A stretch of DNA of 64,000 nucleotides from Syntrophobacteraceae bacterium (GTDB lineage Bacteria; Desulfobacterota; Syntrophobacteria; Syntrophobacterales; Syntrophobacteraceae). The translations under genes and the position numbers were made by a program. Positions 111 through 6,161 of this stretch are shown piece after piece (position 1 is the first letter of the stretch; every line of letters starts with the position of its first letter). The notes beneath the pieces are model-generated. The model was not told the origin of the DNA. It did no database searches and worked only from the letters and a program-made list of their open reading frames with translations. The stretch spans positions 1 through 64,000 of the forward strand of contig JALOOX010000005.1 in NCBI GenBank assembly GCA_025454175.1, given 5' to 3'.

Positions 111-460
111 TCAAGCTGCAGTCCCATCTCGCGACGAGGATCTATGAAAATGCCGCCTGTTGTACGCTACGAGGACCTTCGCTCCACCCAGGCGACTGAG
201 AGCTCTTAACTCTTTTGAGAACAGGGCATGGCCGCAAGATCAGAATTCTGAGGGGAAGAGAGGCTCAATCAGATGGCTGCGTATTGGAATCGCCTCGACC
301 GAAACGCGTTTGATGTTCTTCAGCATCCGGTAAGCATCTTCATACTCTTTGAGGTACCGACCAGCTTTCGAGCTCTCGGGCATCCTCCTTCCACTTCTCA
401 AGGTCTAGTGTGTCCCTCGCGATCTGACCGCAACAGATGCCCGTTCCAAACACTCTTTGA
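111..460 (-). pseudogene. Degenerate PIN-domain-like gene remnant
   Basis: Reading the minus strand gives protein-like segments that do not form one open frame. One frame carries DLEKWKEDARELE. A second frame then carries YLKEYEDAYRMLKNIKR and continues, across an in-frame TGA, into ALFSKELRALSRLGGAKVL and AYNRRHF before a terminal stop at 111. The final piece resembles the 'DA-h-AtAl-lGa-vLvTyNrrHF' end of VapC-like PIN nucleases. At least one frameshift and one stop break it, so it cannot be functional as read. The PIN assignment is by eye and weak; an unrelated decayed gene is possible. No antitoxin gene is visible, and the rest of the first 456 bases holds nothing else I can support. Confidence 0.3.
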
Positions 461-485
461 CAATCAAACAGCCAGAAGCTAGTAT
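457..485 (+). promoter_or_regulatory. Sigma70-type promoter of the thi operon
   Basis: A perfect -35 hexamer TTGACA lies at 457-462, followed after 17 bases by TAGTAT at 480-485 (four of six matches to TATAAT). Transcription would begin near 491-493, immediately before the P1 strand of the TPP riboswitch. The placement is what is expected for a riboswitch-controlled leader. Confidence 0.7.
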
Positions 486-494
486 TAATGGTCA

Positions 495-578
495 CAGCCG
501 TTGGGGGTGCCTGTAAAACAGGCTGAGAAAAGACCCTATGCACCTGATCTGGGTAGTTCCAGCGGAGGGAAATGGCTG
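495..578 (+). promoter_or_regulatory. TPP riboswitch (THI element)
   Basis: The leader carries the conserved THI-box blocks in order: GGGGTGCC, GGCTGAGAA, ACCC, CACCTGATCTGGG, then CCAGCGGAGGGAAA. P1 can form between CAGCC (495-499) and GGCTG (574-578). It lies just downstream of a strong promoter and about 210 bases before thiF, with an intrinsic terminator right after it, so it should shut off thiFGHSE by premature termination when thiamine pyrophosphate is bound. CTGAAAA (576-582) can pair with TTTTCAG (594-600); this possible antiterminator would compete with P1. Confidence 0.95.
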
Positions 579-598
579 AAAAGGCGCTTCGTTTTTTC

Positions 599-630
599 AG
601 ACCGCTTCCTCTTGGATTCGGTCTTTTTTT
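599..630 (+). terminator. Intrinsic terminator of the TPP riboswitch
   Basis: AGACCG (599-604) pairs with CGGTCT (619-624) around a 14-base loop and is followed by a run of T. It is the expression platform for the TPP aptamer just upstream. Its stem is only six base pairs, so efficiency may be moderate. Confidence 0.7.
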
Positions 631-668
631 GTTTTGGAATTAGGCACTTAGGCGAATGTTAAAATAGT

Positions 669-709
669 CCGACAAGGACTGGACAACACCAGCGTAGGGA
701 AACGGTCGG
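669..709 (+). promoter_or_regulatory. Second riboswitch-like element resembling the 3' half of a TPP aptamer
   Basis: CCGAC (669-673) pairs with GTCGG (705-709), enclosing a CTGG/CCAG hairpin (679-692) followed by CGTAGGGAAACGG. The inner sequence lines up almost base for base with the P4/P5 half of the TPP riboswitch 120 bases upstream (CTGG, six bases, CCAGCG, one base, AGGGAAA). The pyrimidine-sensing P2/P3 arm is absent. It sits in the thi leader before its own terminator, so it is probably regulatory. A small thiS-motif (HMP-PP) riboswitch or a decayed duplicate TPP aptamer are the two readings; I cannot decide between them from memory. Confidence 0.6.
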
Positions 710-743
710 CGCGCGAGATTCAGCGCATCCGAGTTGTTTTGAC

Positions 744-772
744 GCTTCCCCTGTGCGGGAAGCTTTTTTTTT
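744..772 (+). terminator. Intrinsic terminator in the thi leader
   Basis: GCTTCCC (744-750) and GGGAAGC (757-763) form a perfect 7-bp stem with a CTGTGC loop, followed by an uninterrupted run of T. It is the second terminator of the thi leader and ends just before the ribosome binding site of thiF. Transcription into thiF must read through it, so it is probably controlled by the short element at 669-709. Confidence 0.85.
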
Positions 773-789
773 GAGGAGAACGGGAGCGC

Positions 790-1560
790 ATTCTTTTCCG
801 CCGAAATCTCCTCATCGAGGACATGGGAGAGGCCGGCCAGCTGGCGCTTCTCGGGAGCAGGGTTCTCCTGGTCGGTCTGGGCGGTCTGGGCAGTCCGGCC
901 CTCCTGTACCTGACGGCGGCCGGAGTCGGATCGATCGGGATCATGGACATGGATCGGGTGGAGCTCTCCAATTTGCAGAGGCAGGTTCTTTACGGCGAAG
1001 GGGATCTCGGAAGCGATAAGACTTCCCGTGCTCGGGCCAGGGCCATGCAGATCCGCTCAGATGCGGAAGTGCAGGTTCACCAGGGCCGAATCTCCGAGGC
1101 CAACGCCCGGCAGATCATCGCCGGATATGATTTTGTCATTGAAGCCACGGACAACCGGGAATCGAAGTTCGTGGTGAACGATGCCTGCGTGGCACTGAAT
1201 ATCGCCTTCTCCCACGCCGGTGTGAGCGAACTGCAGGGGCAGACCATGACGGTCCTTCCCGGGAGAGGCCCCTGCGTGCGCTGCGTTTTTGGCGATGTTC
1301 CCGACCTTGAAGCCGGGCGTGAAGGGGAGGAGCGGGGGATTCTGGGTCCCGTCGCCGGGGTTGTGGGTGCGATCCAGGCCCTCGAGGCCATCAAATACCT
1401 GGTGGGCTTCGGGGAGCTGCTCGTCGGACGTCTCCTGACCTGGGATGCCGGGAGGATGGAATTCAGGCGTGTGCCGCTCCCCGCCGAGCCCAGTTGCGGA
1501 GTGTGCGGGAAATTGCTCGACGGAGCGGAATACGAGAAACGTGGCTTCAGAAACCAGTAA
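790..1560 (+). CDS. thiF: ThiS adenylyltransferase ThiF (E1-like)
   Basis: An E1-like enzyme that adenylates the C-terminal glycine of the sulfur carrier ThiS for thiazole synthesis. The nucleotide-binding GLGGLGSP loop, the [14 protein letters not shown] segment with its acidic and arginine residues, and DKT are present. Two CxxC pairs (CVRC and CGVC) fit the structural zinc site. The first ATG, at 823, would cut off the conserved N-terminal stretch: the same frame upstream reads FRRNLLIED before MGEAGQ, matching the usual RxSRNLL..EiGeeGQ start of ThiF/MoeB. Only an ATT (790) follows a good GAGGAG site (773-778), so I chose it; 823 is the conservative alternative. The stop lies inside a heptamer repeat. 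It heads the thi operon. Confidence 0.88.
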
Positions 1561-1596
1561 CCAGAAACCAGGAACTAGGAACCAGGAACCAGAAAC
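1548..1596 (+). repeat. Tandem heptamer array (CAGAAAC/CAGGAAC type)
   Basis: Seven consecutive 7-base units: CAGAAAC, CAGTAAC, CAGAAAC, CAGGAAC, TAGGAAC, CAGGAAC, CAGAAAC. The second unit supplies the TAA stop of thiF, so the array lies across the gene end and fills the thiF-thiG gap. A related array of AACCAGA units is found at 16416-16440. Confidence 0.85.
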
Positions 1597-1618
1597 CCCT
1601 TTCAAGGGACAACATCCA

Positions 1619-2395
1619 ATGCTCGACACACCTTTGGTCATTGCGGGCAGGTCTTTTCGGACCCGTCTTCTTCTGGGCACCGGGAAATTCGCGTCATCGA
1701 GCGTCATGCGGGAGGCCATCGAGGCTTCGGGTGCCGAGATCGTGACGGTTGCCCTGCGGAGGGTCGAGCTCGAGAATCCCGAGGACACGATCTTGAGTGT
1801 CATCGACACGCAGCGGTTTCTGCTGCTGCCCAACACTTCGGGGGCGAGGGATGCCGGAGAGGCGGTCAGGCTGGCGCGGCTGGCCAGGGCGGCCGGCTGC
1901 GAGCCCTGGGTCAAGCTCGAGGTGACGCCCGATCCCCACTACCTGCTGCCCGATCCCGTCGAGACCCTCAAGGCGGCGGAGATCCTGGTGAAAGAGGGTT
2001 TCGTCGTGCTTCCGTACATCCACGCCGATCCCGTTCTGGCCAGGCGGCTGGAGGATGTTGGCGTGGCCACGGTGATGCCCCTCGGGAGTCCCATCGGCTC
2101 CAACCGGGGCATCAGGACCCGGGATTCCATAGAGATCATCATCGAGAAGGCCGGAATTCCCGTGGTGGTGGACGCGGGGCTTGGGGCCCCGTCCCACGCC
2201 GCCGAAGCCCTCGAGATGGGGGCCGATGCCGTCCTGGTCAATACGGCCATCGCCGTGGCTCGTGACCCCGTGGCCATGGCCCGTGCGTTCAAGAAGGGGG
2301 TCGAGGCCGGGCGCGAGGCTTACCTGGCGGGTCTTGGAGCTTCGAGGAAGACGGCCGAAGCGTCGAGCCCCCTAACCGGTTTTTTGAGAACATGA
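1619..2395 (+). CDS. thiG: Thiazole synthase ThiG
   Basis: Condenses 1-deoxyxylulose-5-phosphate, dehydroglycine (from ThiH) and ThiS-thiocarboxylate sulfur into the thiazole of thiamine. The 258-residue length is normal. Visible marks are the N-terminal [16 protein letters not shown] segment, the Schiff-base lysine at about residue 99 in EPWVKLEV, the [11 protein letters not shown] phosphate-binding loop and the [18 protein letters not shown]-like region followed by VLVNTAIA. The ATG at 1619 is set by homology; the frame is open further upstream through the heptamer array, which should not be translated as part of ThiG. The spacing to thiH is three bases. Confidence 0.97.
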
Positions 2396-2398
2396 GCC

Positions 2399-3529
2399 AT
2401 GAGCTTCCATGAAATTCTGAAGTCTTATCGATGGGATGATGTCGGCCGGGACATCCTGGCCCGCGACGCCGACGATGTGCGCCGATCACTGGCGGCCCGC
2501 AATCCCGCTCCCCAGGACCTGCTTCCTCTGCTGTCGCCGGCGGCCGAGCCCTTCCTGGAGGAGATGGCTCAGCGGGCCCATCGACTGACGGAGCAGCGCT
2601 TCGGGCGTGTCATCAACCTGTTCGCTCCCGTCTATGTCTCCAACGAGTGCATCAATTCGTGCGTGTATTGTGGATTCAACCGGGTGAACCCCGTGAGCCG
2701 CCTCACGCTGACTCCCCGGCAGGTGGCTGTCGAAGGGCGGCATCTTCACGATGCGGGTTTTCGACATGTGCTCCTGGTCTCTGGAGAGAACCCCCACGTG
2801 GTCACGCTGGAATACCTGACCTGGGTGGTGGACCTGCTGCGCCCCCTGTTTTCTTCCATTTCCATCGAGATCTATCCGCTCGAGGCGGAGGAATACGAGG
2901 AGCTCATCGACCACGGCGTCGACGGACTGGTGATTTACCAGGAGACCTACGACGAAGCCCGATACCCGGAATTCCACCCCGGGGGGCGGAAAAAGGACTT
3001 CCACTGGCGCCTCGAGACCCCCGAGCGGGGAGGGAAGGCGGGGTTTCGGAGGCTTGGGATCGGGGCGCTGCTGGGACTCGGAGACTGGCGGGTGGAGGGC
3101 TTTTTCCTGGGTCTCCATGCGCGCTATCTCCTGAAAAATTTCTGGAAGTCCCAGGTAACGATCTCATTTCCTCGACTGAAGCCCGCGGTGGGCGGGTTTG
3201 CGCCGCCTCACCCCGTGGGCGATGCCCAGCTCGTGCAGCTCCTCGTGGCCCTCCGGCTCTTTCTTCCCGATGTGGGATTCACGCTCTCGACGCGGGAGCC
3301 TCCCCATTTGCGGGACCACCTGATTCCCCTGGGTGTGACTTCCATGAGCGCCGGCTCGAGCACCGAGCCCGGAGGGTACACGCACACCCGCGAGGCTGGG
3401 GCTCAGTTTGAGGTTGCCGACGAGCGATCGCCGGCGGAGATCGCCGAGCTCATCCGGCGAAAAGGGTACGAACCGGTGTGGAAGGACTGGGATCCCGCGT
3501 TTCTCGAACGGGAAGCGGTGAACCGTTGA
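2399..3529 (+). CDS. thiH: 2-iminoacetate (dehydroglycine) synthase ThiH
   Basis: A radical SAM enzyme that cleaves tyrosine to p-cresol and dehydroglycine, the nitrogen donor for ThiG. The CxxxCxxC cluster motif is at C84, C88 and C91 (CINSCVYC), followed by GFNR, and the SGENPH and SAGSSTEPGGY regions typical of ThiH are present. Its 376 residues match the family. The use of ThiH rather than the oxygen-dependent ThiO fits an anaerobe. It follows thiG at three bases and is probably co-translated. Confidence 0.97.
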   Translation: MSFHEILKSYRWDDVGRDILARDADDVRRSLAARNPAPQDLLPLLSPAAEPFLEEMAQRAHRLTEQRFGRVINLFAPVYVSNECINSCVYCGFNRVNPVSRLTLTPRQVAVEGRHLHDAGFRHVLLVSGENPHVVTLEYLTWVVDLLRPLFSSISIEIYPLEAEEYEELIDHGVDGLVIYQETYDEARYPEFHPGGRKKDFHWRLETPERGGKAGFRRLGIGALLGLGDWRVEGFFLGLHARYLLKNFWKSQVTISFPRLKPAVGGFAPPHPVGDAQLVQLLVALRLFLPDVGFTLSTREPPHLRDHLIPLGVTSMSAGSSTEPGGYTHTREAGAQFEVADERSPAEIAELIRRKGYEPVWKDWDPAFLEREAVNR

Positions 3530-3610
3530 GAGTCTTGTGCACTGCGTTGGCAAGGACATGCTTACGGTGTGGATGGCCTTGGCGACGTTGAAGGACAGGG
3601 TGAGAGATCG

Positions 3611-3811
3611 ATGCGCATCGCGGTGAACGGGAAAGAGATGCAGTTTGAAGGTCCGTTGAGCGTCACCGGGCTCCTGGAATCCCTCGGGGTGAACCCCAGG
3701 GCCGTTGTGGTGGAGCGGAACCTGACCATCCTGGACCGGGACCGTTTCAGCGGGGAAGCCGTCCAGGATGGGGATTCCATCGAGATCATTCGGTTTGTGG
3801 GGGGTGGCTGA
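3611..3811 (+). CDS. thiS: Sulfur carrier protein ThiS
   Basis: A 66-residue ubiquitin-like protein ending in GGG; the terminal Gly-Gly is the site adenylated by ThiF and converted to a thiocarboxylate for ThiG. The MRIAVNGKEM start and the DGDSIEIIRFVGGG end are characteristic. The open frame extends to 3569, but the ATG at 3611 matches the family start. It lies between thiH and thiE, about 80 bases after thiH. Confidence 0.96.
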   Translation: MRIAVNGKEMQFEGPLSVTGLLESLGVNPRAVVVERNLTILDRDRFSGEAVQDGDSIEIIRFVGGG

Positions 3812-3879
3812 GCCGGGTCGGACACGGCCCGATGCCGTTGGGTGTCCATAACTTCTGGAGAGCGGATCGAGGTGAGCCC

Positions 3880-4533
3880 ATGAATCGACTGATTCGAAAA
3901 ACGATGTTCGATGCCGTGGACCTCTACCCGGTGACCTGTGAGAAGCTCTCGGCGGGGCGTTCGAACTTCGATGTGCTGGAGGGTGTGGTCCGCGGCGGGG
4001 CGAGGATCATCCAGCTGAGGGAAAAGGAGGCCACGAGCCGCGAGCTTTATGATATGGCGGTCCGCTTCCGCGAGATCACCTCACAGGCGGGCGTCCTCCT
4101 CATCATCAACGACCGGCTGGACATCGCCCTGGCCGTCGATGCCGACGGTGTCCATCTGGGGCAGGAGGATCTTCCCCTCGATGTCGCACGGAAGCTCGGA
4201 CCGGAGCTGATCATCGGCGCCTCGACCCATTCGCTGGAGGAGGCCCTGCGTGCACGGGACTCGGGGGCGGATTACGTGAACATCGGCCCCATATTTCCGA
4301 CGAGCACCAAGGCCGGGGTCAGGGACTTCCTCGGGCCTGAAGCCATTTCCGCCATCAGCCCCCATCTCGGAATTCCCTTCACCGTCATGGGCGGCATCCA
4401 TGCGCAAAACCTCGATAAAGTCCTGCATCATGGGGCTCGAAAGGTCGCCATGGTCACCGAGATCACCCAGGCTCCCGACATTGCCCAAAGGGTCCGCACC
4501 CTGCGAAGCCGAATCCTGGAACAGCAGGCCTGA
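3880..4533 (+). CDS. thiE: Thiamine phosphate synthase ThiE
   Basis: Joins HMP-pyrophosphate to the thiazole phosphate to give thiamine phosphate. About 217 residues with the REKEAT, VHLGQEDLP, GASTHS, IGPIFPTSTK and VMGGI motifs that line the TIM-barrel active site. The frame is open from 3832, but the ATG at 3880 follows a GAGGTGAG site (3869-3876) and fits the family length. It is the last gene of the thi operon. No thiC or thiD is in the window, so HMP-PP supply must be encoded elsewhere. Confidence 0.95.
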   Translation: MNRLIRKTMFDAVDLYPVTCEKLSAGRSNFDVLEGVVRGGARIIQLREKEATSRELYDMAVRFREITSQAGVLLIINDRLDIALAVDADGVHLGQEDLPLDVARKLGPELIIGASTHSLEEALRARDSGADYVNIGPIFPTSTKAGVRDFLGPEAISAISPHLGIPFTVMGGIHAQNLDKVLHHGARKVAMVTEITQAPDIAQRVRTLRSRILEQQA

Positions 4534-5624: not shown

Positions 5625-6161
5625 CTATTTATAGTCCCTGTGGCAGTTGACCATTCGGGTCTGCAGGTCCTGGATCTCATGGATGACCGCCTCGCGGTGG
5701 CCATCCCGGGCAGACCGGATGAGGTTTTCCATGTGTCCCAGGTATTCGCGGGCCGCTCGATCCCATTCCGGTTCGGCATGGGCCGTGAACGCCCGGGAGA
5801 GTCTTTCGAATTCGTCGAGCAGTGGGCTGTCGGGCATGGCGTCCTCGTTGACAGCCTGCTTGAGAGCGCGAAACGTCCGGGCCAGCTCCTTCTTGACCTG
5901 TTTGAAGCTGGATGGAAGCAGGCCCTCTTGACGTGGATCGACTGCCGGTTCACGGCCTTCAGGCGCAGGCAGGCGCCACTCGAGCTTGCATGTGGCTCCG
6001 TGCTTCTTCACCTTCAGGCTCAGCCGCGCTTCAAGGTCTTCGGGCACCTTTATCGATTGGGGGCCGAAGGGAAAACCTCCTTTGCGCACCTGCTCCGCCA
6101 TGTCCTGGAGGCAGTCGGCCAGTTGCGCTCTCCCATGAAGCCATTGGATCTTCTTGCCCAT
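5625..6161 (-). CDS. Amphi-Trp / XXXCH-type small protein
   Basis: 178 residues of unknown function. The N-terminal part (about 1-70), with regularly spaced basic and hydrophobic residues and a KLEWRLPAP end, resembles the small amphi-Trp domain. The C-terminal helical part ends in MVNCHRDYK, matching the Cys-His end that names the XXXCH domain, known mainly from Desulfovibrio-like bacteria in the uncharacterised GAK gene set. No signal peptide is visible. A GGAGG site precedes the ATG. It is followed at 17 bases by the GalT-like gene, so the two probably work together. The family assignment is from memory and should be confirmed by HMM search. Confidence 0.6.
   Translation of the reverse strand: MGKKIQWLHGRAQLADCLQDMAEQVRKGGFPFGPQSIKVPEDLEARLSLKVKKHGATCKLEWRLPAPEGREPAVDPRQEGLLPSSFKQVKKELARTFRALKQAVNEDAMPDSPLLDEFERLSRAFTAHAEPEWDRAAREYLGHMENLIRSARDGHREAVIHEIQDLQTRMVNCHRDYK

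What the first reader, a model, noticed from the sequence alone, without database searches (positions are those of the whole stretch)
495..772. Tandem attenuators in the thi leader: TPP riboswitch plus a half-TPP-like element
Seen: a full TPP aptamer with terminator, then a compact two-helix element whose core repeats the P4/P5 half of the TPP aptamer, then a second terminator just before thiF. Known: the thiS-motif (HMP-PP) riboswitch is small and sits upstream of thiazole genes, though its aptamer is embedded in the terminator, which is not evident here. Inferred: two-input control by TPP and a precursor, or a decayed duplicate.
Basis: partly seen in the sequence, partly recalled or inferred. 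Interest (0 to 1): 0.72.

Follow-up and report, generated by a model that had tools for sequence, protein, structure and literature searches.

The report
TPP riboswitch plus truncated second copy
A thiamine-gene leader carries one intact vitamin-B1 (TPP) riboswitch followed by the back half of a second TPP riboswitch that has lost its ligand-gripping front half; it looks like an evolutionary leftover, not a new sensor, and a complete version of that second switch sits at the end of another contig of the same assembly.

Summary
Observation confirmed. 493-587 is a TPP aptamer (72.5 bits) with a terminator, and 679-709 repeats the P4/P5 half of a TPP aptamer, followed by a terminator (743-772) abutting thiF. 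The two-input reading is not supported. Window 679-777 is identical to the last 99 bases of contig C97 of the same assembly, where it forms the 3' half of a complete TPP riboswitch (71.2 bits) with its own promoter. Most relatives have a single such riboswitch, its terminator abutting thiF. The element is therefore a 5'-truncated TPP riboswitch: it lacks P2/P3 (the pyrimidine sensor) and the 5' strands of P1 and P4. Among 26 family genomes the window's is the only intact orphan half. The tandem order is supported by synteny: the left flank aligns collinearly in G001 and G002, and a degenerate P4/P5 core lies at the same place in G002. The second terminator is conserved in neither. Exactly 99-base overlaps join other contig ends too, so C97 meeting C15 at 679 is an assembly-graph fork: two alleles, or two copies. 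An assembly artefact at 678/679 is not fully excluded. HMP-PP membership is unlikely, though no covariance model was available. Most likely a non-sensing relic; low interest.

The parts
457..485 (+). promoter-like site TTGACA-17-TAGTAT upstream of the first TPP riboswitch
   Evidence: read in the sequence; the same hexamers and order in G001; homology to G001 begins at 438
493..587 (+). complete TPP aptamer (TPP1)
   Evidence: Rfam RF00059, 72.5 bits; groups with G001 and G002 leaders, support 0.93
599..636 (+). terminator 1 (CAGACCG...CGGTCTTTTTTTG); its 5' arm is complementary to the 3' strand of the aptamer (antiterminator)
   Evidence: fold -13.9 kcal/mol and duplex -15.9 kcal/mol; conserved in G001 and G002
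637..678 (+). spacer, not TPP-like, collinear with the spacer of G001 and G002
   Evidence: anchored alignment of 636-678: z=3.65 against G001, 2.23 against G002
679..709 (+). orphan 3' half of a TPP aptamer (P5, 3' strands of P4 and P1); no P2/P3, no 5' strands of P1 and P4
   Evidence: identical to the 3' half of the full TPP aptamer at C97:25139-25233
743..772 (+). terminator 2 of the truncated riboswitch, U-tract abutting the thiF frame
   Evidence: identical on C97; not conserved in G001/G002
778..1560 (+). thiF frame (first in-frame ATG at 823; homology to relatives starts near 781)
1622..4533 (+). rest of the thi operon: thiG-like (1621-2395, named from sequence), thiH, thiS, thiE
   Evidence: NCBIfam TIGR02351 (thiH), TIGR01683 (thiS), TIGR00693 (thiE) above cut-off; thiG read from sequence and position only

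Best explanation
The leader has one working TPP OFF-switch (TPP1 with terminator 1). The second element is the 3' half of another TPP riboswitch, the kind that sits alone in front of thiF in most of the family. It has lost its 5' half, so it has no pyrimidine-sensor arm and cannot form P1 or P4, and should not bind TPP or a precursor in the usual way. Shown: the sequence identity, the truncation, the loss of P2/P3, the collinear place in two relatives. Inferred: that what remains acts at most as a fixed, ligand-independent attenuator (terminator 2 is predicted to form at equilibrium) and is decaying.
For: Window 679-777 equals the 3' half and terminator of a complete TPP riboswitch on C97. Nine relatives read in full have one TPP riboswitch with its terminator abutting or close to the thiF start. 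C97's aptamer groups with those, TPP1 with G001/G002. Spacer and core are collinear in G001/G002: 636-678 z=3.65 and 2.23; core 679-710 z=3.35 in G002, 1.19 in G001; terminator 2 z 0.02 and -0.89. Of the exact CCAGCGTAGGGAA matches in 26 family genomes, only the window's is an orphan half; the one other match outside a TPP hit lies in a reading frame. Predicted probability of the terminator-2 stem is at least 0.95. The pyrimidine-sensor arm is P2-J2/3-P3 and the pyrophosphate arm P4-J4/5-P5, and switching needs both (PMC4112796).
Against: The 3' half and terminator are unusually pristine in this genome, which a long-decayed relic would not be; the fork with C97 may explain that (recent exchange, or a second allele). 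The G001/G002 support rests on short alignments of two genomes, and the right part alone is not significant against G001 (p=0.07-0.17).
Confidence: 0.8

Rival explanations
1. The junction at 678/679 is an assembly artefact or minority allele: the real leader is ykuD - promoter - complete TPP2 - thiF (C97 running into C15:679), and the 678 bases at the start of C15 belong elsewhere or to another strain.
For: C97 ends in exactly 99 bases identical to window 679-777, and other contig ends of this assembly overlap by exactly 99, so C97 and C15 1-678 are two branches entering the same path. ykuD lies upstream of thiF in G001 too. The left branch is only 678 bases long and ends blind.
Against: The left branch is orthologous to the thiF leader of G001 (79%) and G002 (86%), where it also precedes thiF, and the spacer left of the junction is collinear with theirs. 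A graph assembler does not join sequences at a point where they share nothing, so reads should cross the junction (general knowledge of such assemblers).
Confidence: 0.13
2. A TPP / HMP-PP (thiS-motif) tandem: a NOT-TPP AND precursor logic gate, as in Clostridium.
For: Position after a TPP riboswitch with terminator, before thiazole genes, as in 20-30% of thiS motifs (PMC6429828, PMC6478431).
Against: The similarity is to TPP P4/P5, explained to the base by the full copy on C97. In HMP-PP switches the aptamer is embedded in the terminator and its hairpin loop is conserved; terminator 2 is not conserved here. Described from Firmicutes and Actinobacteria. No Rfam match, but Rfam seems to hold no such model, so this last point is weak.
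Confidence: 0.03
3. A new, reduced sensor: the lone pyrophosphate-sensor arm (P4/P5) with the outer helix 669-673/705-709 controls terminator 2 in response to pyrophosphate, HMP-PP or thiazole phosphate.
For: P5, the 3' strand of P4 and terminator 2 are intact; a degenerate core remains in G002; the 3' strand can pair with the terminator's 5' arm (-11.2 kcal/mol).
Against: Only one intact case in 26 family genomes; core decayed in G001; no conservation of the outer helix shown; minimum-energy folds do not favour the two-helix form.
Confidence: 0.04

Closest known systems
TPP riboswitch (THI element, Rfam RF00059)
   Same: 493-587 is a complete member; 679-709 is its P4/P5 half letter for letter as on C97
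   Different: the second element lacks the 5' strands of P1 and P4 and all of P2/P3, and is not recognised by the model
Tandem TPP-TPP riboswitches (213 representatives in tandem, PMC9481103; also before thiF/thiG/thiS in Bacillota, PMC12452182)
   Same: two TPP-derived units with their own terminators before a thi operon
   Different: here the second unit is truncated, so no pseudo-cooperative response is expected
HMP-PP riboswitch (thiS motif), tandem with TPP riboswitches (PMC6478431)
   Same: second attenuator after a TPP riboswitch, before thiazole genes
   Different: no terminator-embedded conserved aptamer; sequence is TPP-derived; described from other phyla

Membership tests
TPP riboswitch (first element, 493-587) | covariance-model score above the gathering score | tested here: met
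   72.5 against 54.3 bits
TPP riboswitch (second element, 664-712) | P2/P3 pyrimidine-sensor arm with the CUGAGA motif | tested here: not met
   absent upstream of 679
TPP riboswitch (second element, 664-712) | P4/P5 pyrophosphate-sensor arm | tested here: inconclusive
   P5 and the 3' strand of P4 are present; the 5' strand of P4 (ACCUGAU) is replaced by CAAGGA
TPP riboswitch (second element, 664-712) | covariance-model match | tested here: not met
   no TPP match at E up to 10 in 664-775
HMP-PP riboswitch (thiS motif) | aptamer embedded in the terminator, conserved terminator loop | tested here: not met
   terminator 2 (743-772) not conserved in G001 or G002 (z 0.02 and -0.89)
HMP-PP riboswitch (thiS motif) | match to the published consensus or covariance model | not testable with these tools
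   no such family surfaced in Rfam 15, not even in 15 ThiF loci, nearly all from Clostridia; the figure with the consensus is not held
HMP-PP riboswitch (thiS motif) | binds HMP-PP and suppresses termination | not testable with these tools
   needs in-line probing or transcription assays

The most novel reading that the evidence does not exclude
The lone P4/P5 half, wrapped by the new outer helix, is a minimal pyrophosphate- or precursor-responsive attenuator working in series with a full TPP riboswitch.
Probability: 0.03. Interest if true: 0.75.

Novelty: new member of a known kind. Interest (0 to 1): 0.2.

Why it matters
It shows how a tandem riboswitch arrangement can lose its second sensor while keeping the terminator, and it warns that 'half-riboswitch' elements in metagenome contigs should be checked against the other contigs of the same assembly before a new sensor class is proposed.

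Tried and rejected
Rfam with gathering and lax thresholds over 400-1000 and 664-775: only chance matches besides TPP (THF-II 17 bits on the terminator hairpin, asX2, RyhB). A simple chimera, with C15 1-678 unrelated to thiF, was rejected because 438-637 is the thiF leader in G001 and G002. A mobile insertion splitting TPP2, suggested by about 4 kb between ykuD and TPP1 in G001, was not supported: those genes (a transporter-like and a hydrolase-like frame) were not found in G000, although that search had no positive control. A direct repeat flanking C15 1-678 within one genome: no further contig with the repeat was found, so neither shown nor excluded. ORFs in 160-540 gave no convincing Pfam match. 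A regular expression and one script failed for technical reasons.

Full report
What is there. The window is the first 64,000 bases of contig C15 of a 163-contig assembly, G000. At 493-587 lies a complete TPP aptamer, 72.5 bits, behind a promoter-like TTGACA-17-TAGTAT (457-485) and before a terminator (about 599-636). The operon behind it holds a ThiF-like protein, a thiG-like frame (named from sequence only), thiH, thiS and thiE. CTGGACAACACCAGCGTAGGGAAACGG (679-705) matches the P4/P5 part of relatives' TPP riboswitches at 85-96% over 25-28 bases, and those matches begin at about 678-679. Terminator 2 is at 743-772.

What the half element is. The decisive match is inside the same assembly: window 679-777 is identical to the last 99 bases of contig C97, where those bases are the 3' half and terminator of a complete TPP riboswitch (C97:25139-25233, 71.2 bits) with its own promoter behind a ykuD-like gene (named from sequence). 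Nine other members of the family read here have one such riboswitch in front of thiF, its terminator abutting or close to the start codon. In a small tree of 13 aptamers C97's groups with those of G004 and G012, weakly, while the window's first aptamer groups with G001's and G002's (support 0.93). The element is thus a TPP riboswitch without its 5' half: no P2/P3, no 5' strands of P1 and P4. TPP riboswitches grip the pyrimidine with P2-J2/3-P3 and the pyrophosphate with P4-J4/5-P5, and both are needed for switching (PMC4112796). A canonical response is therefore not expected (inference).

Is the tandem real? In G000 other contig termini overlap by exactly 99 bases (C3/C2, C20/C102, C122/C88, from about 143 termini sampled). 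The 99-base identity is therefore most likely the overlap length of the assembly graph, and C97 and C15 1-678 are two branches that both run into C15:679. The shared stretch may be longer than 99 bases in reality. Two alleles in the sampled population, or two copies in one genome, would give this. No other contig carries the stretch.

Synteny speaks for the tandem branch. G001 (same genus) and G002 (same family) have a riboswitch orthologous to the window's first one directly in front of thiF (79% over 438-637 and 86% over 494-630), with a spacer of similar length. In anchored alignments, with the stretch under test shuffled, the window's 636-678 aligns with G001 (z=3.65) and G002 (z=2.23), and the P4/P5 core 679-710 with G002 (z=3.35) but hardly with G001 (z=1.19). 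Terminator 2 is conserved in neither. So a half-TPP remnant probably stood there in the common ancestor and has decayed differently. This rests on short alignments of two genomes.

Is it a conserved element? In 26 genomes of the family, every exact CCAGCGTAGGGAA lies in a full TPP riboswitch except the window's half and one match in G015 that lies in an open reading frame. The element alone gives no TPP match. There is no sign of a class of orphan halves.

How it most likely works. The first riboswitch is an ordinary OFF-switch: the 3' strand of its aptamer can pair with the 5' arm of terminator 1 (-15.9 kcal/mol), the usual antiterminator exchange. In two relatives with a single switch the same duplex is stronger (-19.6 and -20.3). 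In the half element the 3' strand can still pair with terminator 2's 5' arm (-11.2), but at equilibrium terminator 2 is predicted to form with probability 0.95 or more. With no aptamer to gate it, the remnant should act at most as a fixed partial attenuator. This is inference from equilibrium folding; co-transcriptional folding was not modelled.

Comparison with known systems. Tandem TPP riboswitches are well known (213 representatives, PMC9481103; before thiF, thiG and thiS in Bacillota, PMC12452182). TPP/HMP-PP tandems are known too (PMC6478431), with the HMP-PP aptamer embedded in the terminator and members in Firmicutes and Actinobacteria (PMC6429828). The element here fails that architecture as far as it could be tested. 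No thiS-motif model surfaced in Rfam, even in 15 ThiF loci, nearly all from Clostridia, so a model-based test was not possible.

Verdict. Ordinary in kind, with a useful lesson about checking sister contigs.

Noticed in passing
G000 C97:24356-25293 and C15:1-777: Two branches of the assembly (ykuD - complete TPP riboswitch; C15 1-678 with TPP1) run into the same thi operon at window 679, suggesting two leader alleles in the population or a second copy.
   Followed up: partly
window 772-823: The thiF frame has no ATG/GTG/TTG at the expected place: relatives start right after the terminator U-tract or shortly behind it, here TGA (772-774) is followed in frame by [11 protein letters not shown]..., and the first ATG is at 823, inside the conserved N-terminus. 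A small deletion relative to G001, another start codon or a sequence error are possible.
   Followed up: partly
window 1548-1600: AACCAGGAACCAG-type repeat between thiF and thiG that recurs at more than 35 places in this genome.
   Followed up: no
window 5628-6161 (-): Protein with a 'GAK system XXXCH domain' (TIGR04358, 46.9 bits).
   Followed up: no
G001:C31:26132-29854: About 4 kb of genes in the opposite direction between ykuD and the TPP riboswitch of the same-genus genome, with no DNA match in G000.
   Followed up: partly
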